Virus record (IMG/VR): IMGVR_UViG_3300005910_000004
Location: 1-64,000 of that record
Strand: one strand, 5' to 3'
Length of the DNA stretch: 64,000 nucleotides
Source: a virus
This document shows, piece by piece, positions 3,095-34,242 of this stretch. The notes under the pieces were generated by a model. That model had not been told where the DNA came from, did no database searches, and worked only from the letters and a program-made list of their open reading frames with translations. The stretch's first letter is position 1. Each line of letters begins with the position of its first letter. The position numbers and the translations under genes are program-made.

Positions 3095-4492
3095 ATGAGT
3101 AGATTTAATGATACAGTTATAACGCAAGACGTAAAAGAGGATACTGGTAATTCTAGCACTACTAATCTTGACCCATCTACAACCTTTACAGGAGTAGGTA
3201 AATCTACTTTAGGAGTTAACGGATTACAATGGTCACTAAAAACAACTGAGAACTGTACTGTTTGTATAGAAGAATCAGACTCACAAGATTCCAATTGGGA
3301 TATAAGTTATTGCTTTGATTATATAGCTAGTAAAGGTGGTCGTGGTGAAACAGTACAAGCTACTAAAGCATACTGGCGAGTAACAGTAACTAATCTAGGT
3401 GTAATTGCAACATCTTATTTTAGATTGTCTTCTGTACTTTGTCCTGTGGCATTACCCTTGCCTAGTGACTTAAGTGCTGATGGTAGACTTAAAAGCGAAA
3501 GTACCTTAGTAGGTCGTGAAAATACTAATAGATATGTTTGGATTAATCCCACTAATGAATTAGCTATAAGTCCAGTATATCGTATGGTTGGTACAGCTTT
3601 TGATAATGATGGTAATGCAGGAGCAGTTGATACTAATTTCTGGACAGCGGTTGTAACTAATGCAGGTACAATTGTGCAAGATGGTGGTATAGTTACATTA
3701 AATACTAATGGTACAGCAGGTGGTACTACTAGTCTTACATCAGTAAGAAGAGCAAGGTTTGTTGCAGGTTCCGCTATGTTGTTTCAAGGTGGGTTCGCTA
3801 GTTCAGCTGCAGCAGCAGGTAACACTAGACGTATAGGTGCTTATGATGATGACAATGGTGTGTTTGCTCAATTTGTAAACACTACGTTTAGCATTGGTAC
3901 AAGAAAATATGATGGCACAACAGCAGGAGTTGATACTTTAATAGATTCAGGTGATTTTAATGGTAACCTAGGTGCTTCATTTACACCAGTAGCTGATACC
4001 TATTATAAGTTAACTATTGAGTATTCTCCATTGGCAGTTCATTGGTATATCAATGGTACATTATTGCATAAAATATCTGGTGGTAATTATTCCGACACAA
4101 TGACACTGCCTATAAAAATGGAATGTAATAATGATACAGTAGACACGGCTAATACATTCAAAACCTTTGGTGCTTATATTGCAAGACAAGGTGAAATTAC
4201 AACTAATCCAACAAGTTATTATCATGCTGATGCAACATTACCGGGTGGGGTACAGTTAAAATATGGGTCTGGAATTGTTAGAGGCATAATTTTAAATAAT
4301 GCTACTAGTGGGGCAGTCATATACTTAACTGATAGTACGACCACCACAACACCAGTATTATGGAAAACCACTACTGGTAAGATATTCGATCAACCCGTAG
4401 CATTGGATTTTCACGGCATGCCATTTAGTAATGGATTGAGATTTTATGTTGATACAGGCGATACAGCAAGTGCAACAATAATTTATGAATAA
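3095..4492 (+). CDS. Putative virion/fibre structural protein
   Basis: 465 residues from ATG 3095 (AAGAGG at 3081-3086 is well spaced from it, while the earlier ATG at 3089 lies too close). Family not recognised with certainty. The sequence is rich in Thr, Asn, Gly and Val with almost no charged helices, as is usual for phage beta-structured proteins. A central part (about residues 205-300) reads like a concanavalin/laminin-G type jelly roll (FQGGFASSAAAAG..., YYKLTIEYSPLAVHWYINGTLLHK). Follows the GLUG protein by 12 bp and is likely in the same transcript. Confidence 0.5.
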   Translation: MSRFNDTVITQDVKEDTGNSSTTNLDPSTTFTGVGKSTLGVNGLQWSLKTTENCTVCIEESDSQDSNWDISYCFDYIASKGGRGETVQATKAYWRVTVTNLGVIATSYFRLSSVLCPVALPLPSDLSADGRLKSESTLVGRENTNRYVWINPTNELAISPVYRMVGTAFDNDGNAGAVDTNFWTAVVTNAGTIVQDGGIVTLNTNGTAGGTTSLTSVRRARFVAGSAMLFQGGFASSAAAAGNTRRIGAYDDDNGVFAQFVNTTFSIGTRKYDGTTAGVDTLIDSGDFNGNLGASFTPVADTYYKLTIEYSPLAVHWYINGTLLHKISGGNYSDTMTLPIKMECNNDTVDTANTFKTFGAYIARQGEITTNPTSYYHADATLPGGVQLKYGSGIVRGIILNNATSGAVIYLTDSTTTTTPVLWKTTTGKIFDQPVALDFHGMPFSNGLRFYVDTGDTASATIIYE

Positions 4493-4608: not shown

Positions 4609-6216
4609 ATGATAAAGAGAATTATATTGATGTGTATTATTATATTTATTACACTCAATAGAAGTAATGCTTCAGAGATATCTGATATTCGATACCATTA
4701 TGATGATTCAGATACCATTATTACTCCGACTAATGTATTTAGTTTCACAGTGTTGAATGATAAAGCTACTATTATGGGTTATACTGGGAGTTATGTTAAT
4801 ATTGTAATTCCATATGAATTTTATAACATTCCTATTACTGCAGTTGGAGATGATGTATTTTATGATGATGATAATATAGAGGTAATAGTTGGTAGTAGAA
4901 ATTTAACATCAATTGGAGATTCTTTTGCCTATAATTGTGATATTTTAACTCGTATCGAATTACCACAAGTAGCATCAATTGGGGATTCTTTTGCTGTTCA
5001 GTGTTATTATTTGAGTAGTATTGAGTTACCGCAAGTAACATCCATTGGAGATTCTTTTGCTGGGTATTGTGGGCATTTGATTCGTGTCGAGTTACCACAA
5101 GCAATTTCAATTGGTGATTCATTTGTCAGTCATTGCTATTATTTACTTGATGTTGAGTTACCTCAAACAAGATCAATCGGGGATTCCTTTGCTTATAATT
5201 GTGATACAATGACTAATATTCGGTTATCTAAAGCAACATCAATTGGAGATTCTTTTGCTGGTAGTTGTTATTATTTAACTCGGGTTGAGTTACCTGAAAT
5301 TATATCCATTGGGAATTCTTTTGTTAGTAATTGTTGGGATTTAACTAGTATAGAGTTTGCAAGAACACCTCCAGTATTATCGGATAATATAATACCATCA
5401 CCAATAACTAATGTTATTACTGATCCACATGTACAAGGATGGGGAAGTGAGTTTGGTGGACAGCCTGTTGTGTTTGACCCACCTCAGATATTTTTAGATT
5501 ATCAAGTTGATGATATGATTGTTTATGGGGGTATTACTCTTGGTGGTATTTTCAGAAATACATGGCCGGATTTAATAAATAATTCATTTTTGGATGCTTT
5601 TATTAATACTTATACTGTTCGAACTAATGATATTTTCACTATTGAACGACCAGATGGTTTTATTGAAGGTGTTTATACAAACGCATTAGAATATTATATT
5701 CGTATTGAAATTCCTTTAAATCCTGGTGGTTATCCTGGTACTTGGACTGATTATGAACTTAAGATATTATTTGTCACTAATTCTGTGGAATCTTGGCCAC
5801 TTAATACTCTAGTTTATTATTATCAGACTATGGGAGATCCATGGGATGGTGTTGATAATCATCAAGAAACTTTGGGTGATAGGGATGCTAGAGTATATTA
5901 TGTAGATGATTATAATGCATCAGATGTTCGTAAATGGATGTTATATCAGAATGTAACTGAGGGTGTTATAGATATTCAATCTTTAGCTTTGCAGTTTATA
6001 AGTCTAAATACAGTGGTGGAAACGGTTTTGCATTTTCCATCTCATGATGGGTGCAGTGTTCCATGGGAGACATGGCAATGGAAACAGAATGAGCATAATT
6101 TAAGGGCTGTATTTGTAAGATATAATTCTTTAGGTCCAGAAATGAATCACAATAGTACTTTACAGAAATGGAATCCTGTTACAATAGATTGGGTTCCGAA
6201 ACGTAAAAGTGAATAA
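4609..6216 (+). CDS. Exported BspA-like leucine-rich-repeat protein
   Basis: 535 residues. The N-terminus has a basic start, a hydrophobic core (IILMCIIIFITL) and a likely cleavage site after residue 22 (SNA/SE), so the product should be exported. Residues ~100-260 hold seven repeats of about 23 residues with the pattern SIGDSFA-x-x-C-x-x-L-x-x-I/V-E-L-P-Q, the BspA/LRR_5 type found in bacterial and protist surface proteins. The C-terminal ~270 residues are aromatic-rich and not recognised. AAGGGGAAG precedes the ATG. It is the first of three signal-peptide genes in a row. A role at the host surface or in the periplasm is inferred. Confidence 0.65.
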   Translation: MIKRIILMCIIIFITLNRSNASEISDIRYHYDDSDTIITPTNVFSFTVLNDKATIMGYTGSYVNIVIPYEFYNIPITAVGDDVFYDDDNIEVIVGSRNLTSIGDSFAYNCDILTRIELPQVASIGDSFAVQCYYLSSIELPQVTSIGDSFAGYCGHLIRVELPQAISIGDSFVSHCYYLLDVELPQTRSIGDSFAYNCDTMTNIRLSKATSIGDSFAGSCYYLTRVELPEIISIGNSFVSNCWDLTSIEFARTPPVLSDNIIPSPITNVITDPHVQGWGSEFGGQPVVFDPPQIFLDYQVDDMIVYGGITLGGIFRNTWPDLINNSFLDAFINTYTVRTNDIFTIERPDGFIEGVYTNALEYYIRIEIPLNPGGYPGTWTDYELKILFVTNSVESWPLNTLVYYYQTMGDPWDGVDNHQETLGDRDARVYYVDDYNASDVRKWMLYQNVTEGVIDIQSLALQFISLNTVVETVLHFPSHDGCSVPWETWQWKQNEHNLRAVFVRYNSLGPEMNHNSTLQKWNPVTIDWVPKRKSE

Positions 6217-6218
6217 TT

Positions 6219-6239
6219 ATGTTTAAATGGTTTAAACAT
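6219..6239 (+). terminator. AT-rich perfect hairpin after the LRR gene
   Basis: ATGTTTAAA-TGG-TTTAAACAT forms a 9-bp stem with a 3-base loop directly after the stop codon, followed by TTTTAT. Weak because it has few GC pairs; it may be a terminator or an mRNA 3'-end stabiliser. Confidence 0.4.
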
Positions 6240-6268
6240 TTTATAATAAAAAACGAGGAGAGATGAAA

Positions 6269-6808
6269 ATGAAAAAATTAATAACGATGGTTATTATGAT
6301 GACGACAATGTTAGCAAATGCTGATATAACTAATGATTTTGATAACGCAGAAGCTCTGTATTTGAATCAGAATTATAATGGAGCTGTGGTTGCATTTGAA
6401 AAGTTGATTACTGATTACCCTACAGCAAATAAGGATATTTTAGCTAGTGCCCAGTATGATATTGGTCAGTGCTATAAATATACTCGAGATTATTCCGCAG
6501 CTGCTATTGCGTATAATAAAGTCATAGCAGATTACCCTGATGCTGAGAATAGTATTTTAGCTCGTGCCCAGTGTGGTATTGGTCATTGTTTAATTGCGCA
6601 GGGAAAAAATGGTGATGAAGCATATCTGGCTATGTTGAAGTACGGAGATAATAATATATTAAGATCTTTAATAGATAAAGTAGCTGCTACTATGTCGGTA
6701 GAAAATTACATCAAGTTCTTAACTAGAGTTTTGATGGTTGTTTCTGCAACCGAGGAGAATTCTGAGTTTCTTGGTAAAGTTAAGTCTAAACTTGAACTGT
6801 TAAAATAA
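6269..6808 (+). CDS. Exported TPR-repeat protein (YbgF-like)
   Basis: 179 residues from ATG 6269, which is 8 bases after GAGGAG; an ATG two codons earlier is too close to that site. A signal peptide is clear (MKKLITMVIMMTTMLANA, cut before DIT). Two tetratricopeptide units follow at ~25-60 and ~65-100: AEALYLNQNYNGAVVAFEKL...DYP and A-Q-x-x-I-G-x-C, the spacing typical of the periplasmic TolA partner CpoB/YbgF. TPRs mediate protein-protein contact, so it may bind an envelope protein or one of the adjacent exported products. Function not known. Confidence 0.6.
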   Translation: MKKLITMVIMMTTMLANADITNDFDNAEALYLNQNYNGAVVAFEKLITDYPTANKDILASAQYDIGQCYKYTRDYSAAAIAYNKVIADYPDAENSILARAQCGIGHCLIAQGKNGDEAYLAMLKYGDNNILRSLIDKVAATMSVENYIKFLTRVLMVVSATEENSEFLGKVKSKLELLK

Positions 6809-18935: not shown

Positions 18936-19334
18936 ATGGATACTGACAAAATTTTTACTAGAGTTATTCTTTTTGAGAATTCTGTTTTTGCTGCATCTAG
19001 TGCTGCAAAAGAGATGTTAAAGAAATGCTCTGATAAATGCAGGAAGAGTATTAAAAATGGTCCTGATTATAATTTTCAAGTGAAGGTATGTTCTAGTACC
19101 TGTAGAATGAGAGGTTATACACAGATCATTTCTACATTAAATAAATTAAAGAATGGTTCCGTATCTAAAGGATCATTAAATAAAAAGATAAAATATTTTT
19201 CTATACAATTACAAAAAGAGCGAATGAAATACAAACAATATAGAGAGCAACTGAAGAAGAGACAGACTAAAATTCCTGTTAGTCAATCTTTGAAACCATC
19301 ACCAGAACGATGGGATCCCAAAAAGCTCAACTAG
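18936..19334 (+). CDS. Unknown basic protein upstream of rpoC
   Basis: 132 residues, AAAAGGA upstream. Not recognised. Two Cys pairs (KCSDKC ~31-36 and CSSTC ~53-57) and a Lys-rich helical C-terminal half (KKIKYFSIQLQKERMKYKQY). It precedes the polymerase genes with no terminator between, so it may be a polymerase-associated or structural protein. Confidence 0.5.
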   Translation: MDTDKIFTRVILFENSVFAASSAAKEMLKKCSDKCRKSIKNGPDYNFQVKVCSSTCRMRGYTQIISTLNKLKNGSVSKGSLNKKIKYFSIQLQKERMKYKQYREQLKKRQTKIPVSQSLKPSPERWDPKKLN

Positions 19335-19345
19335 GAGATTTTTTC

Positions 19346-22300
19346 ATGAACCAAATATATCTGTCAGATATTAAAAAAATAACACAATTGATGGACCCAG
19401 TGACCACTCCGGATTATGTTGTTGGCAAAGGTGTAGTATTACATCCTGAAGGTTTATTTTCTGAAAAGATCTTTGGTGCAAAGGATTCCCCTGAACGACG
19501 AAAGACTTTATCATATATTGAATTACATTGTAAAATTATTCATCCAGCATTAGTTAAGCCAATATGGACATTAAATAGAAAAATTATTGAAGCAATTGAA
19601 AGAAAGCAGGCATTTCGATTTGATGATAAAGGAACTTTAATTGCTGATCCTGAAGGTGATATTAATGGGATAACTTCTGTTGTGAAAAATTTTGAGAAAA
19701 TGATTTCAAGGGAAGAAACTGATCAGAAGAGAATTGATGTTAAAAATATGATTATGAATTATTTGAAACATGATATGGTTTTCGTTGATAAGTGCATAGT
19801 TATACCAGCATCATCAAGAGATGCAGAAATTGATGAAATTTCTGGTGGTATGAGAGTTAAACCAATTAATGATTATTATGTTAAAATATTAAGACAGTCC
19901 ATTCAATTGGAATCTATTTCTTTAACGGAAGGTCCGATGTATGATATTCTTGCATCTAAGATGCATGAGTTGGTTAGTGATTTATACAATTATATCATTC
20001 AGAAGATTTCAAAGAAACAGGGTATTGTTCGTCAAAATATATTAGGAAAGAGAATTGATTTTAGTGGTGGGGCTGTCATTACTGGTGCAGCTACAGAGAT
20101 TAAGATTGATGAAATCGGTATCCCTTTTATGATGTTAGTTAAACTATTTGAACCATTTATCATTTATGATATTCATAATAGTGGGAATATTGATCAGAAG
20201 AAATTTGCTGAACTTCTATTAGATTTTAATGGACAAACATTTAGTATCCCATCTACTCGTCGTTTAATGTCTAGTATTAATAAAAAATTTAAGCTCCCAG
20301 ATGAATTAGAAACAATGGTAAAAGCTTCTGTGAATCGAGCAATTGCTGGTAAGGTTGTATTAGCTAAACGTGATCCAGCACTCCATGCAGAGTCTGTTCA
20401 GGGGTTCAAACCGGTAATGGTTGATGGTAATACTATCAAATTAAATATTTTAAAATGTGGAGCTTATAATGCAGATTTTGATGGAGATAGAATGGCCATT
20501 TATGTGCCTATAACAAAAGAATCTATCCAAGAAACTAAAGATAAAATGATAAATTCTGAATCTAAGGATGCAATGGGGACTATCAGTGATGACTTTTCAA
20601 AAGATATGGTTATCGGATTATATGCTCTCACTCAGGATAGTAAATCAGAACGAGCTCCAATAGTCATTAGGGATGATAGGCAATTAACAGAAATGTCTCC
20701 TATTGATATAATAAAATATGATGGTAAGGTCACAACAGTTGGTCGTGTGATGTTTAATAAGGTATTACCTTCTAAAAAATATCATACTAATGTACCAACA
20801 GGAAAAAAAGAAATCAATAAATTAGCAGCTTTAATATATAATGACTATAAACATGAAGATGGGAATCCAACATATGTAAAATTCTGTCATGAGTCTGTTA
20901 AATTGGGTATGAAATATTATACTATTATGGCACCAAGTTTTAGTCTTTCTGATTTTGAGATTCCTGCTCATATAATGAAAATGAAAGATGAGTTAGATAC
21001 TGCTAAAGATCCTGTAGAAGCTAGTCTCATAACAGATAGAATGACCGATGCATTACAAAAGCATGTTGAGGAAAATGGCACTAATATTGGTATTATAGGT
21101 AAGGCTGGAGGATTGAAGAATGGTTATAAACAATCAAGACAGATCTTAGTTGCGAAAGGATTGCTTGTAGATCCAAATGGTGGTATTCGTGTTATAAAAA
21201 ATAGTTATAGTGATGGATTTGAGAGCGATGAATATTTTGAAAGTGGTTATGGTTCGAGAAAAGGTATTATTGATAGGGTATTGAATACTTCGGATACTGG
21301 GTATCTATCACGACAATTGGTATCGGCACTTCAACGAGTTGAAGCCGATCCACGAATTAAAGATTGTAGAACTAAGAGGTTTGTTACGATAAAAGTTGAT
21401 GCAGATATTGCCAGTCGATTAGAAGGTCGATATATCGTTGATGATGAGAGGAAAATTGTCCCTTTCAACAAATCACAGCATATGAACAAAGTGGTTCATC
21501 TGAGATCCCCCATGTATTGTACTACTCCATCACTATGTCGTACTTGTTATGGGGATATGATGATGCGTAACAAAACAAAGTATGTTGGGATTCTAGCAGG
21601 GGAAATATGCGGTGAAAGATTGACTCAGACGATTATGATGACATTCCATACTGGTGGTAGTGTATCTATTAAGACAATGGATATCATGTCTGAGATCTCT
21701 AGAATGTTAGATTCATCACATAAGAGATTATTAGAAAGACATTTCAAACAGACCACATCAGAACTCCATGCTTTAAGTGATGGTTCCATTTATATTTCAA
21801 TGGCTGACTATTTAGATTCTAAAAAGGATATTGAATTAACAAAAACCAGTCTTAATTTAAATTATGGTTATTTTAATTTGAACTATGCTGATACTGTCAC
21901 AAGTGTGACCTTAGATAATAAAATTGAAATTGATTTAACTGATAAGCAAATAAAACAAGATGCTAAGGCTATTATTATTACTTATAAGAAGGGATCGATA
22001 GTATTAAATACTGTACCAACAAATGATGCTTTCTCAGAACAGGTTAAGATCATTGAATCTTTATTTTCTGGTCGAACTCCTTACAAAAACGCTGATCATT
22101 TTCTTATGAAAATTTATGATCAATATTTGACATTGAATACTAATACTGATATGATTCATTTAGAAGTTCTAGCATCCAATCTCCTTAGAGATAAGGGGAA
22201 TCCTGCATATCCTGCAAGATTGAATCCGAATTATGATCCAGTTGTAAGAGGCCCAAAGGCTATTCCGAAATTGGAATCTTGGCTTCAAGCATTGGCATTT

Positions 22301-22393
22301 GAGGATCCGAAAGCTTCCATTACTACTGGATTGATATATGATAGACCCACTGACGAATCTCTTTTAGAGAAACTTGTAACCGGAAATTTTTAG
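19346..22393 (+). CDS. rpoC: DNA-directed RNA polymerase beta' subunit, phage type
   Basis: 1015 residues from ATG 19346 (TAGGAGA upstream). Bacterial hallmarks are present in order: GLFSEKIFGA near the N-terminus, the DFSGGAVITG region, the catalytic metal-binding NADFDGD at 375-381, the CTTPSLCRTCYG zinc site and GERLTQTIMMTFHTGG of the trigger-loop/bridge region. It is far shorter than bacterial beta' (~1400) and lacks the N-terminal zinc ribbon Cys cluster. Unlike phiKZ-type phages the subunit is not split. It stands before rpoB, the reverse of the bacterial order. No alpha, omega or sigma subunit was recognised in the window. Confidence 0.92.
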   Translation: MNQIYLSDIKKITQLMDPVTTPDYVVGKGVVLHPEGLFSEKIFGAKDSPERRKTLSYIELHCKIIHPALVKPIWTLNRKIIEAIERKQAFRFDDKGTLIADPEGDINGITSVVKNFEKMISREETDQKRIDVKNMIMNYLKHDMVFVDKCIVIPASSRDAEIDEISGGMRVKPINDYYVKILRQSIQLESISLTEGPMYDILASKMHELVSDLYNYIIQKISKKQGIVRQNILGKRIDFSGGAVITGAATEIKIDEIGIPFMMLVKLFEPFIIYDIHNSGNIDQKKFAELLLDFNGQTFSIPSTRRLMSSINKKFKLPDELETMVKASVNRAIAGKVVLAKRDPALHAESVQGFKPVMVDGNTIKLNILKCGAYNADFDGDRMAIYVPITKESIQETKDKMINSESKDAMGTISDDFSKDMVIGLYALTQDSKSERAPIVIRDDRQLTEMSPIDIIKYDGKVTTVGRVMFNKVLPSKKYHTNVPTGKKEINKLAALIYNDYKHEDGNPTYVKFCHESVKLGMKYYTIMAPSFSLSDFEIPAHIMKMKDELDTAKDPVEASLITDRMTDALQKHVEENGTNIGIIGKAGGLKNGYKQSRQILVAKGLLVDPNGGIRVIKNSYSDGFESDEYFESGYGSRKGIIDRVLNTSDTGYLSRQLVSALQRVEADPRIKDCRTKRFVTIKVDADIASRLEGRYIVDDERKIVPFNKSQHMNKVVHLRSPMYCTTPSLCRTCYGDMMMRNKTKYVGILAGEICGERLTQTIMMTFHTGGSVSIKTMDIMSEISRMLDSSHKRLLERHFKQTTSELHALSDGSIYISMADYLDSKKDIELTKTSLNLNYGYFNLNYADTVTSVTLDNKIEIDLTDKQIKQDAKAIIITYKKGSIVLNTVPTNDAFSEQVKIIESLFSGRTPYKNADHFLMKIYDQYLTLNTNTDMIHLEVLASNLLRDKGNPAYPARLNPNYDPVVRGPKAIPKLESWLQALAFEDPKASITTGLIYDRPTDESLLEKLVTGNF

Positions 22394-22402
22394 AGGTAAT
22401 TA

Positions 22403-25400
22403 ATGATTGATATAAAGAAACTTAAACTATTCCCCTTCACTACTAAGGATGTGGCATACACTACTTCTGATCAGGGTAAGAATTATAATTTGATTTTTTA
22501 TCCGGAAAATACGAGTTTTTCCAATGCTTTTTCTAAATTAAGAATACGAAGACAATTTGTTAGATTTGGTACAGTTATACCAGCACAAATTCCACGTCTA
22601 GTCGTGAATGCTAATTCTTTATCTTCAATAGTTTCAAATGGGTTGCGTCCAGTTCGGGTGAATAAACCATATATCAAAAATATGTTTGTTGATACTTCAT
22701 TGTATTTAGATATGGTCGATGCTAAATATAAGAAACAATCATATCGCCGACCTATTGTTGCATCTAAGATTAAATCCTATCTAACCTCTACAAAATCAGT
22801 ATATTCTGATCGGGATAATATTCTTATGTATTATGTTGATTTAGATAAACCGATGCCAGAAAATATTTTCGAGAAACGAGCATATATATTATATAGTATG
22901 TTTAGATCTAAAGAAAAAGTTCCTTTTGATTATGTAATGATGGCAGTTAATACCAATGGGGTTATTAAATATTCATTATTAAAGACTCCTACTTCACAGA
23001 TTGCCATTGGTCGATTGTTAAGTCTATTAAAACAGATAAAGACTCGCCCGGTAGATGATGCAATTAATCAAGAAAATGAAGAAATAGAACAGGTGTCTGA
23101 TAGGATTGAAGCTCTTACTAAAACAGAAAAGGATCATAATATTGCAATTGCTGTTAGACAATATATTATGAAGCTTCCTTTTAAAAAGAGATCATCTATT
23201 ATCAATTCTAGTAATCTAAATCCTGAATCTGCAAAAAGATTAGTTGTTAAAGCATCAGTTTATGGGATGACAAAAGATTTAAAGAAGGCAGAGAGAATAT
23301 CAAAGAATATCACGAGTCAGAAATTAGATAGTGCTATAAAAAAGATTAAAAGAGATATAGCTCCTACTATTTTGAAAACAGATTCTTATAGAAATGAATC
23401 TAGAGATCCAGTGTATAAGAAAACGAATATAAATTCAATTAATGAAAATAAAAATCCTAGTGCTGTGATGAGTAAACGTCATGTTGATTTCTCTGAATCA
23501 TTTGAATCTGATTTGCTGAAATCATTCAGTATTCTAAAACGAAAAGATAAATTTCCATTAACAATCTCATCATTCAAAAAGGCATCTGTTCCCGTAGATC
23601 CTGGTGACCTAGAACCAACTAAAATGATCAGATATTCTATAACATTACAAGATGATAATAAGCAAAGTCATGAGGTTGAAATTGACATTCCTGAGATACA
23701 ACCAGATGGAACATTCTTAGTTAATGGTAATAAGAAATATCTTGTTTATCAATCAGTTGTTGATCCGATCTTTTTCTTTAAACCTGGTCAGGCAAAACTA
23801 CAAACCATGTATGCTCCAGTGGCTACGCATTGGAAGGAAACTAAACATAAATCTTATTTTCAATCTCAGATAGGGGGATATTGGTTACCTACTGGATTAC
23901 TATTATCTTATTTTATGGGATTTTCAGAAATGTGTAATTTATTTGGTATGAAACATAATATTCAATTATCTAAGCCAATAGATCATAAGAATTATGTTGA
24001 ATTAGCTGATGGAAAATATTTAGTATTTGAATGGGATGGTGATAAGAAAGAAAATCTAATATTAATTAATTCTTTCAAAGAGATTAATGGTGATTTAACT
24101 AGTGAAGTATTGACTGATAAGAAAAACTTTAAAGATTTGATTATTAAACAGACCGAAAATAGAAATAGTATTTTCCGGATTGATTCGGTATTAGAAAATA
24201 TAATGGAACCTATATCTGTAGAAGTTTTGAAGACAAAGATGCAACCAATTACTTTTGATGGATGTATGATTTATATATGTAAAGGACTTGTTGCTGGTCG
24301 GGTTGATGATCGTAATGATATATCAAAACAAAGAATCAGAAGTGCTGAAATTTTCAATTATCAGATTCAAAAACAGATTTTGAAATCATATAACGTATAT
24401 CTATCTCAGCGTGAGCATGGTGATGATGATTCCGAATTTTATTGTGATACTCGTGAGTTAGTTAAAAATATTGTGAATGATAAATTGGTTCAAAGTATTG
24501 AAAATATTAATCCATTTGAAGAACTATCTAGTTTGACTAAAGTATCCCCTGTTGGACCTGGTGGATTAGCAGATAAAAAGGCAATGACTAAACCATCTAG
24601 AAGTCTACATAATTCATATTATGGTAATTATGATCCAATGGATACACCAGAGAATGATTCAGTTGGTATCATAAATCAATTGACTGTTGATGCTGCCATT
24701 GGAAATATTCGAGGGTCATTTGGGGAGTTTGAAAAGACAACTGCTGCAAAGGCTTCTATATTAAGTACTAGTGCTAGTATTGTACCTTATATTGGTTCAT
24801 GTGATGGATGTCGTGTAATGTTTGGGGCATCTCAGACTCGACAATCTGTTCCGATTATGGGAAATCAACCTCCTATTGCTCAGACTGGTTTTGAAACTAT
24901 CTTAACTACCAATTTAAGTGATTCATATATTAGAAAAAGTCCAGTTGATGGTATAGTTGTTCGAATGAGTGAGAATGCTATTTATGTTAGAGATGTTAAG
25001 AATAAGGTTCATATAATTCCATTGAATACTGAAAAATTAAAATCAGCTCAGGGTAAAAGTTCATTGAATTATTTTCATCCGGTTATTAAAGAGGGCGAGA
25101 AGGTTAAAGAAGGTCAGATATTGGCTGAAGGTAAACATATTAAGAATGGTATTATTTCTGTTGGTCGGAATTTGTTAGCTGCCGTAATGGGATGGAAAGG
25201 ATATTCATTTGAAGATGGATATATTATTTCGGAATCTGTTGCTAATAAATATTTTGTATCACCAGTATATGAAGAGATAACAATTAATATAGATGCGACA
25301 TCTACAATTAAAATGATTGCTGAAGAAGGAGCTGATACTAAAAATGGAGAACCTTTAATTATTAGATCATCTAAAGAGGTTGAAGAATTATTGGAAGTTG

Positions 25401-26512
25401 AAGAAGATGAGTTAGTAGATGGTCAGTTTGTAAAACCATCACCTGGTGGTAAGATTATAGCTATTGAAATATATCCGAATATATCATTGAAGAAATTTCC
25501 AGTACTAATTCCTCAATTCAATAAATTTAAGAAAAGATATGTTGAAATGAAAGGTGAATTCCCGAAGAAGTTCTTGGTGAATGATGCTGGATCTAAAAAA
25601 CCATTTCCGGGTATTCGTATTGTATTTAAAATTGAGAGAATGGATAGATGTCAAGTTGGTGATAAAATCACAAATAACCATGGTGGTAAAGGTGTTTTGA
25701 CTCTTATTGAAAAAGATGAGAATATGCCAATAACTCCGTGGGGTGAGAGAATAGAAGTGATTATTAATGCAATTGCGATCATTAATCGTATGAACCCTAG
25801 TACTTTGTTTGAATTGTATACTGGGTTAATAGGGAAGTTTCTTGCTAAAAGAGTTATTGCATATGGTTATAAAAAGAATGATAAGGCATTGAAATTGTTA
25901 GAATCCGTTTATAAACAAATGGATAATACTGAAGATAAAAAATTATCTGAAAATATTGTCAAATCATATAAGTCTTTATCAGATAACCAATATACTCAAT
26001 ATGTGAAAGATATTAAAGAGAGAGGATTTCTTCCAATATATGTTCCTCCATTTCAAGCCCCAACTAAAGATATGATTAAAAAAGCTCTTAAATTGGTTGG
26101 AGCTAAAGATAAATATGTATTAAAATTACCAGAATATGGAACAGTAACACAAAATCCAGTAACTGTTGGGTGGTTATATTATAAAAAGTTAGAACAGCAA
26201 TCCGAGTATAAAGTTTCTTCTAGGTCTATATCTAAGTATTCAGAGAGTACTGGTCAACCTGTTGCTGGAGCTAAAAATGGCGGTGGACAGCGTTTAGGTG
26301 AGATGGACACTTGGGCAGTTGCTGCACATGGCGCTGAATCGTTATTAAGAGAATTACTCGGGCCCCTATCAGATGATACATCTACTAAAGAAGAAATTAT
26401 ATTTGATGTTATTCAGAATGGAGAAGCTGCATATAGAGAACCGAAGGGTGGTAAAACCAAAGACCTTTTAAATATTTATATGGCTGGTATGATGTTGGAT
26501 GTGAAGGTATAA
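22403..26512 (+). CDS. rpoB: DNA-directed RNA polymerase beta subunit, phage type
   Basis: 1369 residues, 9 bp after rpoC with AGAGG as ribosome site. Recognisable core pieces: YDPMDTPENDSVGIINQL (fork region), FGASQTRQSVPI, GYSFEDGYIISES, CQVGDKITNNHGGKGV, MNPSTLFELYTG, and near the C-terminus GGQRLGEMDTWAVAAHGAE. The N-terminal ~380 residues match no bacterial lobe by eye and are Lys-rich and helical. Together with RpoC this supplies the catalytic centre of a phage-encoded multisubunit polymerase. An endonuclease gene starts 2 bases after its stop codon. Confidence 0.92.
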   Translation: MIDIKKLKLFPFTTKDVAYTTSDQGKNYNLIFYPENTSFSNAFSKLRIRRQFVRFGTVIPAQIPRLVVNANSLSSIVSNGLRPVRVNKPYIKNMFVDTSLYLDMVDAKYKKQSYRRPIVASKIKSYLTSTKSVYSDRDNILMYYVDLDKPMPENIFEKRAYILYSMFRSKEKVPFDYVMMAVNTNGVIKYSLLKTPTSQIAIGRLLSLLKQIKTRPVDDAINQENEEIEQVSDRIEALTKTEKDHNIAIAVRQYIMKLPFKKRSSIINSSNLNPESAKRLVVKASVYGMTKDLKKAERISKNITSQKLDSAIKKIKRDIAPTILKTDSYRNESRDPVYKKTNINSINENKNPSAVMSKRHVDFSESFESDLLKSFSILKRKDKFPLTISSFKKASVPVDPGDLEPTKMIRYSITLQDDNKQSHEVEIDIPEIQPDGTFLVNGNKKYLVYQSVVDPIFFFKPGQAKLQTMYAPVATHWKETKHKSYFQSQIGGYWLPTGLLLSYFMGFSEMCNLFGMKHNIQLSKPIDHKNYVELADGKYLVFEWDGDKKENLILINSFKEINGDLTSEVLTDKKNFKDLIIKQTENRNSIFRIDSVLENIMEPISVEVLKTKMQPITFDGCMIYICKGLVAGRVDDRNDISKQRIRSAEIFNYQIQKQILKSYNVYLSQREHGDDDSEFYCDTRELVKNIVNDKLVQSIENINPFEELSSLTKVSPVGPGGLADKKAMTKPSRSLHNSYYGNYDPMDTPENDSVGIINQLTVDAAIGNIRGSFGEFEKTTAAKASILSTSASIVPYIGSCDGCRVMFGASQTRQSVPIMGNQPPIAQTGFETILTTNLSDSYIRKSPVDGIVVRMSENAIYVRDVKNKVHIIPLNTEKLKSAQGKSSLNYFHPVIKEGEKVKEGQILAEGKHIKNGIISVGRNLLAAVMGWKGYSFEDGYIISESVANKYFVSPVYEEITINIDATSTIKMIAEEGADTKNGEPLIIRSSKEVEELLEVEEDELVDGQFVKPSPGGKIIAIEIYPNISLKKFPVLIPQFNKFKKRYVEMKGEFPKKFLVNDAGSKKPFPGIRIVFKIERMDRCQVGDKITNNHGGKGVLTLIEKDENMPITPWGERIEVIINAIAIINRMNPSTLFELYTGLIGKFLAKRVIAYGYKKNDKALKLLESVYKQMDNTEDKKLSENIVKSYKSLSDNQYTQYVKDIKERGFLPIYVPPFQAPTKDMIKKALKLVGAKDKYVLKLPEYGTVTQNPVTVGWLYYKKLEQQSEYKVSSRSISKYSESTGQPVAGAKNGGGQRLGEMDTWAVAAHGAESLLRELLGPLSDDTSTKEEIIFDVIQNGEAAYREPKGGKTKDLLNIYMAGMMLDVKV

Positions 26513-28338: not shown

Positions 28339-28536
28339 AATAAAAGTTTATTGCTATATATATTTATATATGAATAGCAGAGAAACATTACTTAATTTTT
28401 ATATTTAAATAGTCTTGAATCATTACGTCTGAACCTAACAATTTGGATTGTAATGATTAAATTACATAGGTTATATTGTCTCAATTCATTCTTTTTTGTT
28501 GAGATAAAAAATTATATTATATGGAGAAATACACAT
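28339..28536 (+). promoter_or_regulatory. Intergenic leader with promoter-like AT motif
   Basis: Holds TATATATTTATATATGAATAG at 28356-28377, within an imperfect hairpin TGCTAT...ATAGCA. The segment through about 28405 resembles 14830-14875 of the other large intergenic region (both continue AAA..ATTAC..A). Likely carries the promoter of the abundant-type gene that follows. Confidence 0.35.
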
Positions 28537-29400
28537 ATGGCATTACTTAATGCATCACAGTATGGGAAACTTGGAGATGTTTCATCTTCTCAGCAGCGCC
28601 GAACACCTGGAAAATTTCATTCAGTGTTTATTACTGGTGCTTCTCGGGAAGGACAGGAAATCGGCAAGTTTCAGGTTATGTCTGATTTAGACAAAGGAAT
28701 ATATTTAAAACAGAATGAATCAGAAGTATTATTCATTCCTTATTTTATTAAACGTATTTGGACAAAGTATACTGAGTCTTTGAATCAGAAAAATGAAAAA
28801 TATTCAAAACTTGTTGCTTTTGGATGGGCGGATGATATTCCGAAACTTGATGATGATTGCAAATATTCTTATATTATTGCTGGTCTTTTATTAGATAAAA
28901 ATGGTCAGGCTATGAAACATGAAATTGATATTGAAGATGCTGGTATTAAAGTTGGTGATCCAGTTTTATGTTATTTTTCATGCGGTGGTATGAAATTTAA
29001 TGGTGCTATGAAATTCATTGATCATATTTCGGATAAAGCTAAGGATCTTCCACCTTTGAGTGATAGTCCTGAATTCGAAAGAACTGTTGTATATCCGCGT
29101 AGGTTTATTTGTAAGGTTATGAAAGGTATAGCCCCATCAAAGCATGGCGATAAAATGGTATTTGATTTTGCAGTGGCAACTCAATTACCAGATAAGGTTG
29201 TTGGAAAAGTTATGGATAGCGCAATGGGATTACTTCCAGAGTTTGAGAAGCAGTTTGATAAAACAGCATTTGTTCGTGGTGGGACTGCATCATCAGTTTC
29301 AACATCAGTAGATTCTGATGCTCCGACATTTACTGAAGCACCAGACCCAGTTCCTGAATCAGATATTGTTACAGATGATGATTTTGATTTGGGTATTTAA
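28537..29400 (+). CDS. Candidate single-stranded DNA-binding protein
   Basis: 287 residues from ATG 28537 (GGAGA). The last ~30 residues form an acidic, flexible tail ending DDDFDLGI, the kind of C-terminal tip by which SSB proteins contact partners. The body is rich in short beta strands with Lys and aromatic residues and has Ser/Thr/Pro-rich linkers before the tail. It has its own leader and a strong terminator, consistent with high expression. No conserved OB-fold signature could be read by eye, so the call rests on tail, length and context beside topoisomerase genes. Confidence 0.4.
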   Translation: MALLNASQYGKLGDVSSSQQRRTPGKFHSVFITGASREGQEIGKFQVMSDLDKGIYLKQNESEVLFIPYFIKRIWTKYTESLNQKNEKYSKLVAFGWADDIPKLDDDCKYSYIIAGLLLDKNGQAMKHEIDIEDAGIKVGDPVLCYFSCGGMKFNGAMKFIDHISDKAKDLPPLSDSPEFERTVVYPRRFICKVMKGIAPSKHGDKMVFDFAVATQLPDKVVGKVMDSAMGLLPEFEKQFDKTAFVRGGTASSVSTSVDSDAPTFTEAPDPVPESDIVTDDDFDLGI

Positions 29401-29427
29401 ATAATCGACCTTCCTTAGGTTACAAGT

Positions 29428-29456
29428 CCCGTCTCACATTATGAATGTGAGACGGG
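29428..29456 (+). terminator. Strong terminator after the SSB candidate
   Basis: CCCGTCTCACATT-ATG-AATGTGAGACGGG, a 13-bp perfect stem followed by CATTTTAAT. Confidence 0.88.
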
Positions 29457-29501
29457 CATTTTAATATAAAAGGAGAACTTAAACATATTTGATTGTATTC
29501 A

Positions 29502-29515
29502 GAATAAAATTAAAA
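29502..29515 (+). promoter_or_regulatory. GAATAAAATTAAAA element upstream of endonuclease gene
   Basis: Directly abuts AAGGATT and the ATG at 29527. It lies downstream of a terminator, so the endonuclease needs its own promoter; this recurrent motif is the best candidate. Confidence 0.4.
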
Positions 29516-29526
29516 GGATTAATTTT

Positions 29527-30423
29527 ATGATATGTTGTGAAAAATGCCATAAAGAATTTCATAGAGATTTTGCATTACAGATGCATTTGATGACTGGTAA
29601 AAAACATAAATCAGAATGTTATCAATATTATATTGATGAGTATAAACATGAGAGTGATTTCCCAACTAGGAAATATTCGAAGACTAAATTAGGAATTAAT
29701 CATATTCAATGTGAGTGTTGTTCGAGAAGATTTAAAAATTTAACTATGCACTTGAATCGATATTCTCCTGATTGTTATAGGTATTATATTGATAAGTATG
29801 GAGATGAAGATAATTTTCCCATGAGAACAATTAATAATAAAGGACAGTGTCTTGATTGTGGATCCAAGACATCTCATTATAGTATAAAATATTGTTCTAA
29901 ATGTTATATAAAGTATCTTCCGCAGAAAACCGATATGAAATTAATTGAATTAATAAGAAAAAAAGTTAAAGAAACTACATCAGATCCAGTATATCGAAAA
30001 AATCTATCAAAAAAAGTAAAAGAATCATTTCGAAAAAATCCAAAATTAGCTGAGAATCAGAGAAAATATATGCTTGAGGGTGGTGCTATAAAAGCATTAC
30101 TTGGTAATAAAAATCCATCTAAACCTCAAATTGAATTCTTTGGATTGGTTTGTGATATCCGAGATGATTCTGTTATGAATCATCCCATTTGGGAATTGAA
30201 TATTTTATTAGATATTGCTATCCCTTCATTGAAATTGAATTTGGAATATGACGGATCTTATTGGCATCAGAATAAAGAATTAGATGATATTAGAGATATG
30301 AATTTAACTAAGATGGGGTGGGTCATATATAGATTTATAGATCGAATTCCTAGTTTGAAGGAATTATCAGAAATAATAAAAAGGACTGAATATGACAGAA
30401 GACATCAAAAAATCGGACTATGA
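29527..30423 (+). CDS. Homing endonuclease-like protein with zinc fingers and Vsr-like C-terminus
   Basis: 298 residues. Two N-terminal fingers (CEKCHKEF...H; CECCSRRF...H) each followed by a Y-x-Y-Y-I-D segment, a CGS...CSKC cluster near 115-135, and a C-terminal nuclease-like part with LDIAIPSLKLNLEYDGSYWHQ, D-x-x-D and WVIYRF. This is the DUF559/Vsr arrangement, related to but distinct from the YGVDN-repeat endonucleases nearby. It overlaps the start of the topoisomerase B gene by 32 bp, so it sits immediately upstream of the fractured gene. Confidence 0.6.
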   Translation: MICCEKCHKEFHRDFALQMHLMTGKKHKSECYQYYIDEYKHESDFPTRKYSKTKLGINHIQCECCSRRFKNLTMHLNRYSPDCYRYYIDKYGDEDNFPMRTINNKGQCLDCGSKTSHYSIKYCSKCYIKYLPQKTDMKLIELIRKKVKETTSDPVYRKNLSKKVKESFRKNPKLAENQRKYMLEGGAIKALLGNKNPSKPQIEFFGLVCDIRDDSVMNHPIWELNILLDIAIPSLKLNLEYDGSYWHQNKELDDIRDMNLTKMGWVIYRFIDRIPSLKELSEIIKRTEYDRRHQKIGL

Positions 30424-32233
30424 CCACAATCAAATACAGACTCTTAGTGAGATTGAGCACCTTCGATTAAACCCAGCGATGTACGTTGGAGAAACTGAAA
30501 CTCCAAACCATTTAATTTATGAAGTATTTGATAATGCATTAGATGAAGCGAATGCTGGTCATGCTGATTTGATAGGGGTGTTTGTAGATAATGCTAAGCA
30601 TGTTTTTACTGTTTCTGATAATGGACGGGGTATTCCTATAACTGGGAATGTTATACCGACAATTGCAACGAAGTTATTTAGTGGTGGTAAATTCTCAAAG
30701 GGGTCTGAGGGGTCCGCATATGGGATTGCTGCTGGTCTACATGGTATTGGACTAGTAGCCGTAACTGCACTAAGTGATTGGGTTGAGATCATAGTGTATA
30801 GAGATAAAAAAAGAGCTTTTTATAGATTTGAAAACACTGTTCTAGCTAAAGAAGAGATTACTGATTATAAAGAAATTCCACCATTCTCAAGTCAAATCTC
30901 ATTTAAGCCTTCTCAGAAGTATTTTGAAACTCTTGATATGGATATTGGTCCTATTCGAGATAGGTTGGAGATTGCATCTGTACATATTCCTAAATTAAAA
31001 TTGATTTTAATGAATAATGGAGAGAAAGAGATAATTAACTGTAACGTTGATGATTTCTTTAAACGAACATTATTGAAAAATAAAACAACGGATGTTACTC
31101 CTATCTTTATAGCTAAAACTAAAGTTAAAGATGAAGAAATATTAGTGAAGTTTGCATGGGATTGTTCAGTACCATCAAGTCCACGACATTTAGGAAGTGT
31201 GAATATATTACCTGTGAATCAGGGAACACATATCAATAAAGTGTATATTGCATTCAAAAATGTATTTACAGCTTATGCTAAAAAAGAAAAGTTAAATTTT
31301 ACTCCTCAAGATTGTTTGGTTGGGTTTCGAGTATTTACTAGTGTGTCGTTATACACACCTGAATATTCAAGTCAGACTAAAGAAAAATTATCTACATCTA
31401 AAGCTAAAATGGATCATTTGTTTAATGGTTTAGAAGATCAAATTGAAGCTATGATTGATAAATATCCATCAGTAAAAACACAGATTCTAGGTTTTTTTGA
31501 AGGGTATAGAAAAAGTTTATCTGTTAATAAAAATATTATAAAGGGTAGTAAGAATGTATCTAGATTTAATCAAATAATAGATTCAAAATTAAAAGATTGT
31601 ACTTCACATGATGTTGCTAGAAGTGAATTGTTTATTACTGAGGGAGCATCTGCTGCCGGGGGATTGGTTCAATGTAGAGATCCGAAGATTCATGCTCTTT
31701 TGGGTTTGAAAGGTAAGATTCCTAATTTGGCTGGGACCAAAAAAGATTTTCTTAAGAATAAGGAAATTGTGGAAATTATTAATGCTTTAGGAACTGGGAT
31801 TGAACCTGATTTTAATTTGGAAACATTAAGGTATGGAAAAATTATGTTCGCTACAGATGCTGATGCTGATGGTTGCGTACCTCGAAATCATACACTCGTA
31901 TATGTTCAAACTAAAAAAGAACAAATTAAAAAGATTAATCTCTCAGAAATAATTGATAATGTAGATCAATTTAAAGATTCTTTTATTTTAGGATATGATG
32001 AAATTGATTTGAAATATATTTGGACTCCTATTTTAAAAATATGGCCTTATAAAATATTTAAAAAATGGTTAGATGTTGAAATGGAAGATGGTTCTATTCT
32101 TACATTAACACATGATCATCTAGTTTTAACTGAAAATAGAGGATGGATCCGATGTGATGAATTAAATAATGGAGATAATATAATAGATGCAAACGAAACC
32201 ATTAAAAATTCAAAAACTCTTTCAGACTTATGA
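30392..32233 (+). CDS. Type II DNA topoisomerase subunit B, N-terminal piece fused to intein N-half
   Basis: 613 residues, AAAAGGA before the ATG. Residues 1-494 are the GyrB/ParE-like extein: GHKL ATPase motifs (DNALDEA, DNGRGIP, GLHGIGLVAV), transducer segment, then Toprim TEGASAAGG and ATDADADG, where it breaks. At Cys495 (codon 31874-31876) an intein N-half begins; it contains the splicing block B TLTHDHL. The host gene continues at 33898. Without trans-splicing the Toprim metal site would be incomplete, so the enzyme should depend on the intein. With the subunit A gene at 36.2 kb it forms the phage topoisomerase. Confidence 0.9.
   Translation: MTEDIKKSDYDHNQIQTLSEIEHLRLNPAMYVGETETPNHLIYEVFDNALDEANAGHADLIGVFVDNAKHVFTVSDNGRGIPITGNVIPTIATKLFSGGKFSKGSEGSAYGIAAGLHGIGLVAVTALSDWVEIIVYRDKKRAFYRFENTVLAKEEITDYKEIPPFSSQISFKPSQKYFETLDMDIGPIRDRLEIASVHIPKLKLILMNNGEKEIINCNVDDFFKRTLLKNKTTDVTPIFIAKTKVKDEEILVKFAWDCSVPSSPRHLGSVNILPVNQGTHINKVYIAFKNVFTAYAKKEKLNFTPQDCLVGFRVFTSVSLYTPEYSSQTKEKLSTSKAKMDHLFNGLEDQIEAMIDKYPSVKTQILGFFEGYRKSLSVNKNIIKGSKNVSRFNQIIDSKLKDCTSHDVARSELFITEGASAAGGLVQCRDPKIHALLGLKGKIPNLAGTKKDFLKNKEIVEIINALGTGIEPDFNLETLRYGKIMFATDADADGCVPRNHTLVYVQTKKEQIKKINLSEIIDNVDQFKDSFILGYDEIDLKYIWTPILKIWPYKIFKKWLDVEMEDGSILTLTHDHLVLTENRGWIRCDELNNGDNIIDANETIKNSKTLSDL
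31874..32230 (+). other. Split-intein N-half (IntN, ~119 residues)
   Basis: It begins with the nucleophilic Cys after extein Gly494 (block A: C-V-P-R-N-H-T-L-V), has block B (T-x-x-H as THDH, followed by G-W-I-R-C-D-E-L) and ends at the stop, with no block F/G. The length is typical of split-intein N parts. Confidence 0.88.
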
Positions 32234-33782
32234 ACAATACATATCTAAAAGGAAACGAGGTTTATTAGCTACTGTTCATACTATAATGAAGGATGTAGAC
32301 GTTCAGAATTGGTTAAATGATAATAATTCAACTGGTCGAGATTTAGATGAAAAATTATATTTGATATATCATTGTCTTGATCATGTTGAATTATGTCCAT
32401 ATTGTAATAAACCTAAAAAATTCACTTTGAAAAAAGAATATGAAATTGATGGGATGAAACATAGAAAATGTAAAAAATTCCCATTCAATCATATCTTTCA
32501 ATCATATGATGAATTTTATGGTATTGAAGAATTTAAAAAAACTACTTATTTTTTATTCATTCAAAAACCAGAAATTCCTTTATTAATAGAAACGTGGAAG
32601 AATAGTCATCCTTTGTTTTATAATTATAATGAACAATACATTCTTCCATTATTTTCATATATAACAAATGAAGAAGATTTAAATCAAATTTCAATATGTA
32701 AATATTGTGGAAAGTTTAAAGCTTCTATAAATTATGATTTGTTTTTGAAACAAAAGAAAATTTATTTTAATGATTATTGTTTTTCATGCGCTGAAATATA
32801 TAGAGGTGAAACGTTTCAAAAATCAGCTCGAAGATTATATGGTGTTGATAATTATAGTCAATTACAATCAGTAAAAAATAAAAAAGTTGAAACATGTCAA
32901 TTGAATTATGGTGTTGATAATCCAATGCAACATGATGATATTAAAGATCGTCATATGAACACATGCATTGATCGATATGGAGTAGAGAATATATCTCAGA
33001 TAGATGATGTGAAAATTAAAAAATTAGAATCTATATTAAAACATTATGGTGATTGTGATACTTTTATAGATATGAGTCTTGGTCATTTTTGTCGAAGTCT
33101 TGGAGTACAAAATGTTTCTCAATTAGATTCAGTTAAAGATAAGAAAATTGAAACATTTTGGTCTAATTATGGAGTAACTAATATTTTTGAGACTTCTGAA
33201 TTTAAAATTTATTTAAAAAAATATAATTTAAAAAAATATGGTGTTGAAAATATATTTCAAAGTGAAGAATTTAAAGAAAAATCTAAATTTACATGTTTGA
33301 AAAAATATGGAGTTGAATATTGGTCTCAATCATTTGAAGGTCGAAAATTTTTACGAGAAACTTTAATTGCAAGAATAGATGATCAGATATTAAATGGGGA
33401 ACCTGTAACACCATTTGTTGGGAATATGGAACGTCCATGTTTGGATACATTGTCTAAAGAATTAGATATATTTATTTTAAGAAATCCTATGTGTATTGGT
33501 TATTTTCCAGATGGTTATATAGAAGAATATAATTTAGTAATTGAATTTGATGAACGTTATCATTTTACTGATAATTATGAAACATATTGTGATCGAGATA
33601 TAAAGAAGAATAAAGATTATAATGAATTTGGATTGAATATTATAAGAATAAAAATGAATGAATGGATGATTGATCCAAAATTAATTATTTTGAATTTAAA
33701 ACGAAAGATATTACAATTTGTTCCGGATCCAAAAATAAAACCAATATTTATTGGAAAAAGATATCGCATAAAAAGGATTTAA
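32187..33782 (+). CDS. Free-standing EDxHD homing endonuclease between the split-intein halves
   Basis: 531 residues, the longest endonuclease here. ATG 32187 overlaps the IntN coding end by 47 bp in another frame, with GGAGAT as ribosome site. The N-terminal ~200 residues carry two Cys clusters (CPYCNK, CKYCGK...CFSC). Six or more YGVDNxxQ repeats follow (~215-400), then the nuclease region GYFPDGY, IEFDERYHF and a C-terminal Ile-Lys-rich end. Probably cuts intein-less topoisomerase genes at the insertion site and spreads the whole cassette by recombination repair; that target is inferred from position. Confidence 0.82.
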   Translation: MQTKPLKIQKLFQTYEQYISKRKRGLLATVHTIMKDVDVQNWLNDNNSTGRDLDEKLYLIYHCLDHVELCPYCNKPKKFTLKKEYEIDGMKHRKCKKFPFNHIFQSYDEFYGIEEFKKTTYFLFIQKPEIPLLIETWKNSHPLFYNYNEQYILPLFSYITNEEDLNQISICKYCGKFKASINYDLFLKQKKIYFNDYCFSCAEIYRGETFQKSARRLYGVDNYSQLQSVKNKKVETCQLNYGVDNPMQHDDIKDRHMNTCIDRYGVENISQIDDVKIKKLESILKHYGDCDTFIDMSLGHFCRSLGVQNVSQLDSVKDKKIETFWSNYGVTNIFETSEFKIYLKKYNLKKYGVENIFQSEEFKEKSKFTCLKKYGVEYWSQSFEGRKFLRETLIARIDDQILNGEPVTPFVGNMERPCLDTLSKELDIFILRNPMCIGYFPDGYIEEYNLVIEFDERYHFTDNYETYCDRDIKKNKDYNEFGLNIIRIKMNEWMIDPKLIILNLKRKILQFVPDPKIKPIFIGKRYRIKRI

Positions 33783-33783
33783 T

Positions 33784-33897
33784 ATGAAAGTTAAAATAAT
33801 AATAGAACGAAAATCTGATGAAGATGAATTATTTTGTGATTTAACAACTGGTACTGGTAATTTTGTTTTGGCTAATTCTGGTTGTGTTATACATAAT
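33784..33897 (+). other. Split-intein C-half (IntC, 38 residues)
   Basis: Starts with its own ATG; blocks F and G are intact and end in His-Asn immediately before Ser. Comparable in size to known split-intein C parts. Confidence 0.88.
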
Positions 33898-34242
33898 AGT
33901 CATATTACTGCATTGTTAATGGTTATGGCTTTGAAATTAGTTCCGGCATTACTCAGAGAACAGAAACATATATATAGAGCGATCATGCCATTGTATGGTG
34001 CGACGGTCAAGAAGAAGTTTATACCATTATTTACAGATGAAGATCTTGAGAAATTTAAAATAACTAATCCAAATCAGAAAATTCAGAGATATAAAGGGTT
34101 GGGGGAAATGAATCCAGATCAATTAAAGGTATGTCTTTTAGATAAAGATACACGAAGATTGGAATTGATTAAATATCCTACAAATCCAGGAGATATCTTT
34201 AAATTGATGACAAGTGCTGAACTCAAACGAGATCTTATTTAA
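33784..34242 (+). CDS. Intein C-half fused to the C-terminal piece of topoisomerase subunit B
   Basis: 152 residues from ATG 33784 (AAAAGGA). Residues 1-38 are an intein C-half: LFCDLTTGTGNFVLANSG (block F) and CVIHN (block G, terminal His-Asn). Ser39 is the +1 extein residue, followed by HITALLM, which continues the Toprim SHIRTLL motif of GyrB, and QRYKGLGEMNPDQL, the conserved tail motif. Joined to the N-extein (494 residues) this gives a 608-residue subunit without gap or overlap. It is translated from its own start, so splicing must occur in trans. Confidence 0.9.
   Translation: MKVKIIIERKSDEDELFCDLTTGTGNFVLANSGCVIHNSHITALLMVMALKLVPALLREQKHIYRAIMPLYGATVKKKFIPLFTDEDLEKFKITNPNQKIQRYKGLGEMNPDQLKVCLLDKDTRRLELIKYPTNPGDIFKLMTSAELKRDLI

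What the first reader, a model, noticed from the sequence alone, without database searches (positions are those of the whole stretch)
32187..33782. Endonuclease probably targets the intein insertion site
The nuclease gene between the halves has the YGVDN repeat array and the EDxHD layout of the neighbouring free-standing enzymes, but its position means that cutting an intein-less topoisomerase gene at ...GATGGT/AGTCAT... and repairing from this genome would copy IntN, nuclease and IntC together. Seven such genes in one window suggest strong pressure from homing competition among co-infecting phages.
Basis: partly seen in the sequence, partly recalled or inferred. Interest (0 to 1): 0.7.

Follow-up and report, generated by a model that had tools for sequence, protein, structure and literature searches.

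The report
Homing nuclease splitting a phage topoisomerase
A phage's topoisomerase gene is cut in two by a split protein-splicing element that carries a DNA-cutting enzyme gene between its halves, an arrangement that very likely lets the whole package copy itself into related phages; this is a new example of a known kind.

Summary
Window 31874-33897 is a 2,024-bp insert in a phage type II topoisomerase large-subunit gene. It consists of a 119-residue N-intein, a separate 531-residue nuclease ORF and a 38-residue C-intein, and ends exactly at GATGGT|AGTCAT. Joining the exteins gives 608 residues, colinear with intein-free relatives of 601-613. The site is uninterrupted in all five nearest relatives found and in 79 of 80 related viral loci. 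The nuclease has eight YGVxN units (Pfam DUF7487) and a C-terminal domain whose predicted fold best matches I-Bth0305I, the EDxHD type enzyme (Z 13.5).

The interpretation, homing into the intein-less gene, is the best explanation but untested. The arrangement is the published "fractured gene" type (Dassa 2009, seen only as a citation), and I found further examples in other phages. The toprim motif is hit repeatedly: cis inteins at the same site, a split intein two codons upstream, and a 284-nt intron-like insert at the identical position. The nuclease's nearest relative is free-standing, and free-standing enzymes often cut far from their gene, so the cleavage site is not established. Only four of the seven nuclease genes share its layout. 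New member of a known kind.

The parts
30392..31873 (+). N-extein: topoisomerase II large subunit residues 1-494, ending ...TDADADG
   Evidence: phrog_543 E 1.2e-88; junction translation
31874..32233 (+). N-intein (119 aa plus stop): C1, block B LTHDH; last 47 bp overlap the nuclease ORF
32171..32174 (+). GGAG, possible ribosome-binding site 12 nt before the nuclease ATG
   Evidence: read directly; not tested
32187..33782 (+). Free-standing-type homing endonuclease ORF, 531 aa
   Evidence: PHROG 'homing endonuclease' families E 3e-22 and 3e-20; DUF7487
32838..33377 (+). Eight YGVxN units, mostly 23 residues apart (DUF7487), probable DNA-contacting array
   Evidence: helical units in the model; DNA contact is inferred
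33399..33725 (+). Vsr/EDxHD-type nuclease domain (residues 405-513) with conserved E415, D442, E453, H459, D471
   Evidence: invariant in 7 of 7 rows; 3r3p Z 13.5
33773..33777 (+). AAGGA, possible ribosome-binding site 6 nt before the IntC ATG
   Evidence: read directly; not tested
33784..33897 (+). C-intein (38 aa) ending in HN
   Evidence: TIGR01443 at its cut-off
33898..34242 (+). C-extein (114 aa), +1 residue Ser, plus stop
29527..30423 (+). Free-standing EDxHD-like gene overlapping the topoB start; 53% identical to the gene in the same place beside intein-less topoB of L011

Best explanation
Window 31874-33897 is a composite homing element. The split intein (IntN 119 aa, IntC 38 aa) trans-splices the two topoisomerase halves, so the insertion costs the phage little. 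The 531-aa EDxHD-type nuclease, translated separately, cuts an intein-less topoisomerase gene of a co-infecting relative at or near ...GATGCTGATGGT|AGTCAT.... Repair from this genome then copies IntN, nuclease and IntC together with some flanking codons, including the Ser codon at +1 that splicing needs. Shown from sequence: the anatomy, the uninterrupted sites in relatives, intact splicing and nuclease residues, the fold match. Inferred: trans-splicing, cleavage, target position, homing.
For: Exact, in-frame insertion: joined exteins give 608 aa aligned end to end with relatives of 609, 613, 613 and 601 aa, and the site is uninterrupted in 5 of 5 nearest loci. C1, block B TxxH, terminal HN and Ser+1 are present. 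The nuclease domain matches I-Bth0305I 3r3p (Z 13.5, 97 aligned, 2.5 A) and Vsr 1cw0/1vsr (Z 11.7/11.4); Foldseek prob 1.00 for 3r3p, E 3.7e-3. IntN, nuclease and IntC share low GC3 (0.118, 0.119, 0.053) against exteins 0.209/0.272 and gyrA 0.200, fitting one acquired unit. The same arrangement occurs elsewhere: G008 topoB with a 330-aa DYWH-type nuclease between the halves (ATDED|CDGQHI), a G008 AAA gene, G009 polB, S16 uvsW, KP13-7 nrdA, and PolB of phage MIJ3 with an HNH enzyme (PMC6892783 passages). Convergent insertions at the same toprim site: cis inteins in L032 and L033 and a 284-nt non-ORF insert at the identical position in L122.
Against: No cleavage or splicing data. The nearest relative of the nuclease (L035, 42% over 312 aa) is free-standing, so the family is not tied to this site. 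No second copy of this intein or cassette was found (0 of 80 topoB loci; the IntN scan gave no relative), so no transfer is seen. The insertion site is not unusually conserved in DNA: 17% of 20-bp and 35% of 60-bp windows of the gene are as conserved or more. In four of the five nearest loci +1 is Ala, so the intein could settle there only by converting that codon. Block F lacks the usual His (TGTGNF; 'usual' is recalled). The nuclease model is poor overall (mean pLDDT 65.5) and good only over the repeats and the nuclease domain.
Confidence: 0.62

Rival explanations
1. The nuclease is a member of the free-standing pool that moved into the intein as a safe harbour. It cuts a site far away (elsewhere in topoB or in a neighbouring gene) and spreads by long conversion tracts, as T4 Seg enzymes do; the intein is a passenger.
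For: Nearest relative free-standing; own start and stop, and a family of mostly free-standing genes; free-standing T4 enzymes cut hundreds to thousands of bp from their gene (PMC2988022 section 7).
Against: Intron-encoded enzymes in T4 cut within 25 bp of the insertion site (same section); other phages keep different nuclease types in the same IntN-IntC slot, which fits selection for cutting the intein-less site but does not prove it.
Confidence: 0.22
2. Collaborative homing: the abutting free-standing gene 29527-30423 cuts topoB and moves the intein, while the nuclease inside serves another target or is idle.
For: 29527-30423 overlaps the first ATG of the topoB ORF by 32 bp and has a 53% identical counterpart in the same place next to intein-less topoB in L011; collaborative homing is described for phage introns (PMC10448857 passages; PMC2988022 section 16).
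Against: L011 keeps the counterpart without the intein, so its presence does not bring the intein with it; no target data.
Confidence: 0.08
3. The nuclease is inactive or repurposed and the intein is now fixed.
For: No other copy of the cassette is visible.
Against: Intact 531-aa ORF with all five conserved nuclease positions; intein-less relatives still exist as targets.
Confidence: 0.08

Closest known systems
'Fractured genes': split inteins with a free-standing EDxHD homing endonuclease between the halves (Dassa et al. 2009; only its citation seen)
   Same: Gene in two ORFs, split intein, separate nuclease ORF between; closest solved intein is NrdJ-1, which I recall as one of that set
   Different: Host gene is the topoisomerase II large subunit (not on the list I recall); nuclease carries a DUF7487 YGVxN array
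I-Bth0305I, EDxHD homing endonuclease (Taylor et al. 2011; not held)
   Same: Nuclease domain fold, Z 13.5
   Different: Here the gene sits inside a split intein rather than an intron (intron location recalled), with a DUF7487 array whose counterpart in I-Bth0305I I did not compare
Phage MIJ3 PolB split intein with HNH endonuclease (PMC6892783 passages)
   Same: IntN - endonuclease ORF - IntC in a phage replication gene
   Different: Other host gene and other nuclease family
T4 mobA insertion in topoisomerase large-subunit gene 60 (PMC2988022 passages)
   Same: Homing endonuclease gene splits the phage topoisomerase large subunit
   Different: HNH enzyme, no intein; the halves work as separate polypeptides
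cis GyrB inteins at the same toprim site (L032, L033)
   Same: Same codon junction DG|S
   Different: Continuous; in L032 with a possible internal HNH region (motif recalled)

Membership tests
Fractured gene arrangement | Host gene split into two ORFs by intein halves | tested here: met
Fractured gene arrangement | Separate endonuclease ORF between the halves | tested here: met
   own ATG and stop, different frame from IntN
Fractured gene arrangement | Halves trans-splice | not testable with these tools
   only residues checked
Fractured gene arrangement | Intein-less alleles exist as homing targets | tested here: met
   5 of 5 nearest loci uninterrupted; 79 of 80 uninterrupted
EDxHD homing endonuclease | Vsr-like nuclease fold | tested here: met
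   3r3p Z 13.5, 1cw0 Z 11.7
EDxHD homing endonuclease | Conserved E, D, x, H, D positions | tested here: inconclusive
   E415, D442, E453, H459, D471 invariant in 7 of 7, but pairing with the named I-Bth0305I residues is recalled, not aligned residue by residue
EDxHD homing endonuclease | Site-specific DNA cleavage and homing | not testable with these tools
   needs bench work
DUF7487 (PF24308) | Score above Pfam gathering cut-off | tested here: met
   97.2 bits, cut-off 27
Class 1 intein | C1, block B TxxH, terminal HN, C/S/T at +1 | tested here: met
Group I intron (for the L122 insert) | Match to an Rfam group I model | tested here: inconclusive
   no Rfam match at E 0.1; fold z -4.4; T before the 5' end and G at the 3' end

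The most novel reading that the evidence does not exclude
The DxDxDG toprim codons of phage topoisomerase II act as one shared landing site, reached independently by cis inteins, two different split-intein cassettes (this site and one two codons upstream in G008) and an intron-like RNA insert (L122). The cassette here formed when a free-standing DUF7487 nuclease already able to cut that sequence entered the intein, i.e. a natural end product of collaborative homing.
Probability: 0.35. Interest if true: 0.55.

Novelty: new member of a known kind. Interest (0 to 1): 0.4.

Why it matters
It adds the topoisomerase large subunit to the genes seen with this arrangement and gives a defined system (cassette, intein-less alleles, a free-standing relative of the nuclease) for testing how free-standing nucleases and inteins join into one mobile element. 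The split intein may also be useful for protein ligation.

Tried and rejected
Searching IMG/VR with the nuclease alone found no pattern match. The IntN scan gave 4 pattern stretches, none a relative. Plasmids held no relative of the nuclease. A genome-contig scan with A4 gave none. The second intein-family signal in the record at 93962-94099 (E 0.018) lies in an ORF without an intein block A or G, judged by eye, and was rejected as chance. Site conservation as evidence for targeting was tried and is weak. A co-conversion footprint in sliding identity against L009, L010, L011 and L013 was looked for and not seen. A tree of 15 nuclease domains has one well-supported inner branch of 12 and cannot order the family. 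Pfam gave no family for three of the other split-intein nucleases (two in L066, one in L067) and for the second one of L014. In one search, 42, 2 of 5 loci are topoisomerase cis inteins, 1 (L030) is an intein-less gene with Cys at +1, and 2 (L031, L034) are not topoisomerase frames. One search kept the best 80 of 89 loci; the set is chosen by KKDFLKN/TDADADG and contains the contigs of L009-L013 again. A PMC search for split intein + topoisomerase + phage + homing endonuclease gave 4 papers, only the listing read; the library lacks Dassa 2009 and Taylor 2011, so a printed topoisomerase case is not excluded.

Full report
What is there. The window is part of a 141,546-bp virus record. A topoisomerase II large-subunit gene (phrog_543, E 1.2e-88) is interrupted at 31873/33898. 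Upstream ORF 30392-32233 ends in a 119-residue N-intein; ORF 32187-33782 (531 aa, other frame, 47-bp overlap) follows; ORF 33784-34242 starts with a 38-residue C-intein and continues into the C-extein. Joined exteins give 608 aa, aligned over their length with four relatives of 609, 613, 613 and 601 aa.

Intein. C1, LTHDH, terminal HN and Ser+1 are present. NCBIfam intein_Nterm scores 22.6 (cut-off 24.5) and intein_Cterm 15.6 (cut-off 15.6). The best solved match is NrdJ-1 (8ubs, E 2.3e-5). Among the inteins I compared, KP13-7 nrdA (34% over 104) and S16 uvsW (35% over 95) are nearest; the cis intein at the same site (L032) is not close (26% over 38).

Nuclease. DUF7487 (E 1.8e-27) and PHROG homing endonuclease families. 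Eight units start with YGVxN or a variant, mostly 23 residues apart. The AlphaFold model is weak over the first 220 residues and good over repeats and nuclease domain; its best structural relatives are I-Bth0305I (Z 13.5) and, near it, 3hrl (12.8) and Vsr (11.7, 11.4). Foldseek itself put four mitoribosomal chains above 3r3p by E-value, with low TM-scores. E415, D442, E453, H459 and D471 are invariant in 7 of 7 rows of A1; in the 15-row A3, E415 and D442 stay invariant and H459/D471 do not, being absent from the two L045 rows among others.

Empty sites. Five nearest loci (53-67% identical) all have an uninterrupted site; +1 is Ala in four and Ser in one. Of 80 wider loci none has an intein there; 79 read through (L114 read by continuing its frame) and L122 is interrupted. 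In L122 the insert 3742-4025 is 284 nt, begins after GGT and ends in G before TCACACATC, carries no ORF of 60 aa of its own and folds better than shuffles (z -4.4, stretch with some flank); no Rfam model matches, so 'group I intron' is a guess from its ends and a recalled core motif.

Composition. GC of IntN, nuclease and IntC is 0.255, 0.243, 0.254 against exteins 0.330 and 0.322. Against windows of 19 other genes or gene parts of the window, 0.6% are as low as IntN, 0 of 326 as low as the nuclease, and 6% as low as IntC. GC3 is 0.118, 0.119, 0.053 against 0.209 and 0.272. The free-standing nuclease genes are also AT-rich (0.27-0.30), so this supports one unit but not strongly.

Same arrangement elsewhere. 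In the 405-kb record G008 a topoB is split two codons upstream (ATDED|CDGQHI) with a 330-aa nuclease between the halves, and a DUF7487 gene abuts topoB; an AAA gene in the same record has a 25-aa IntN, a 301-aa nuclease and a 116-aa IntC; G009 polB has a 387-aa nuclease. These nuclease calls in G008 and G009 are by eye (no Pfam family). KP13-7 nrdA has a GIY-YIG enzyme in one split intein and another protein (HNH by eye) in a second; S16 uvsW has a NUMOD3/TnsA-like one, both scores below Pfam cut-offs. These were found opportunistically, not by a census. One further KP13-7 signal (352565-354277) was not examined.

Origin of the nuclease. Nearest is L035, free-standing beside a tail-sheath gene (annotation by eye): 42% over 312 residues, 52% over the nuclease domain. 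The slot downstream of rpoB holds DUF7487 genes in both the window and L011 (30% identical, not sisters in a weak tree) and is empty in L009: the slots are polymorphic and the occupants probably turn over. L010 has a DUF7487 gene between topoB and gyrA, where L009, L011 and L013 have none.

Mechanism. The simplest reading is a homing cassette. Papers seen in part: PMC2988022 (passages, sections 7 and 16), PMC10448857, PMC2814812, PMC3943268, PMC12350094, PMC6892783, PMC7090010, PMC9403480, PMC11879112, PMC3229294 (passages only). They give T4 intron enzymes cutting within 25 bp of the insertion site, free-standing ones far away, mobA splitting T4 topoisomerase gene 60, inteins and group I introns preferring conserved sites, and EDxHD targets near 60 bp. 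Because this enzyme looks like a free-standing one that sits inside an intein, both distances remain possible; I favour the junction at 0.62.

Competition claim. Seven nuclease-like ORFs are present in the window, of at least two kinds; one record elsewhere has 16 DUF7487 matches. The count shows heavy colonisation, not its cause.

Noticed in passing
L122:3742-4025: 284-nt non-ORF insert at exactly the same toprim junction of another phage topoB, preceded by T and ending in G, well folded (z -4.4): possible group I intron without an Rfam match.
   Followed up: partly
L066:5309-8013 (-): AAA ATPase gene with an atypically short 25-aa N-intein, a 301-aa nuclease ORF and a 116-aa C-intein.
   Followed up: partly
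L154:2906-5593 and L156:2837-5335: Genes ending in a 15-16 aa block-A-like stub after GGTG, followed by DUF7487 nucleases; a distant ORF (L171, L172) has intein block-B-like sequence without blocks A or G. Broken or multi-piece intein; no C-intein found.
   Followed up: partly
window 60857-61222: Phage-encoded tmRNA (Rfam 118 bits, tag GNTEFAMAA) plus ten tRNAs by ARAGORN, eleven by Rfam.
   Followed up: no
window 19310-26512: Two large ORFs that look like RNA polymerase beta' and beta subunits (by eye, no family search), with a DUF7487 nuclease directly downstream.
   Followed up: no
window 28453-30423 versus L009, L010, L011, L013: A radical-SAM-like gene (by eye) just upstream of topoB in the relatives is missing here; a nuclease gene occupies the gap.
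   Followed up: no
L010:4400-5428: DUF7487 nuclease between intein-less topoB and gyrA, a slot without a gene in L009, L011 and L013.
   Followed up: partly
L045:3490-4530 and 5645-6589: DUF7487 arrays joined to a nuclease domain lacking the His and Asp of the EDxHD pattern (IEIK instead), so the array pairs with more than one nuclease type.
   Followed up: no
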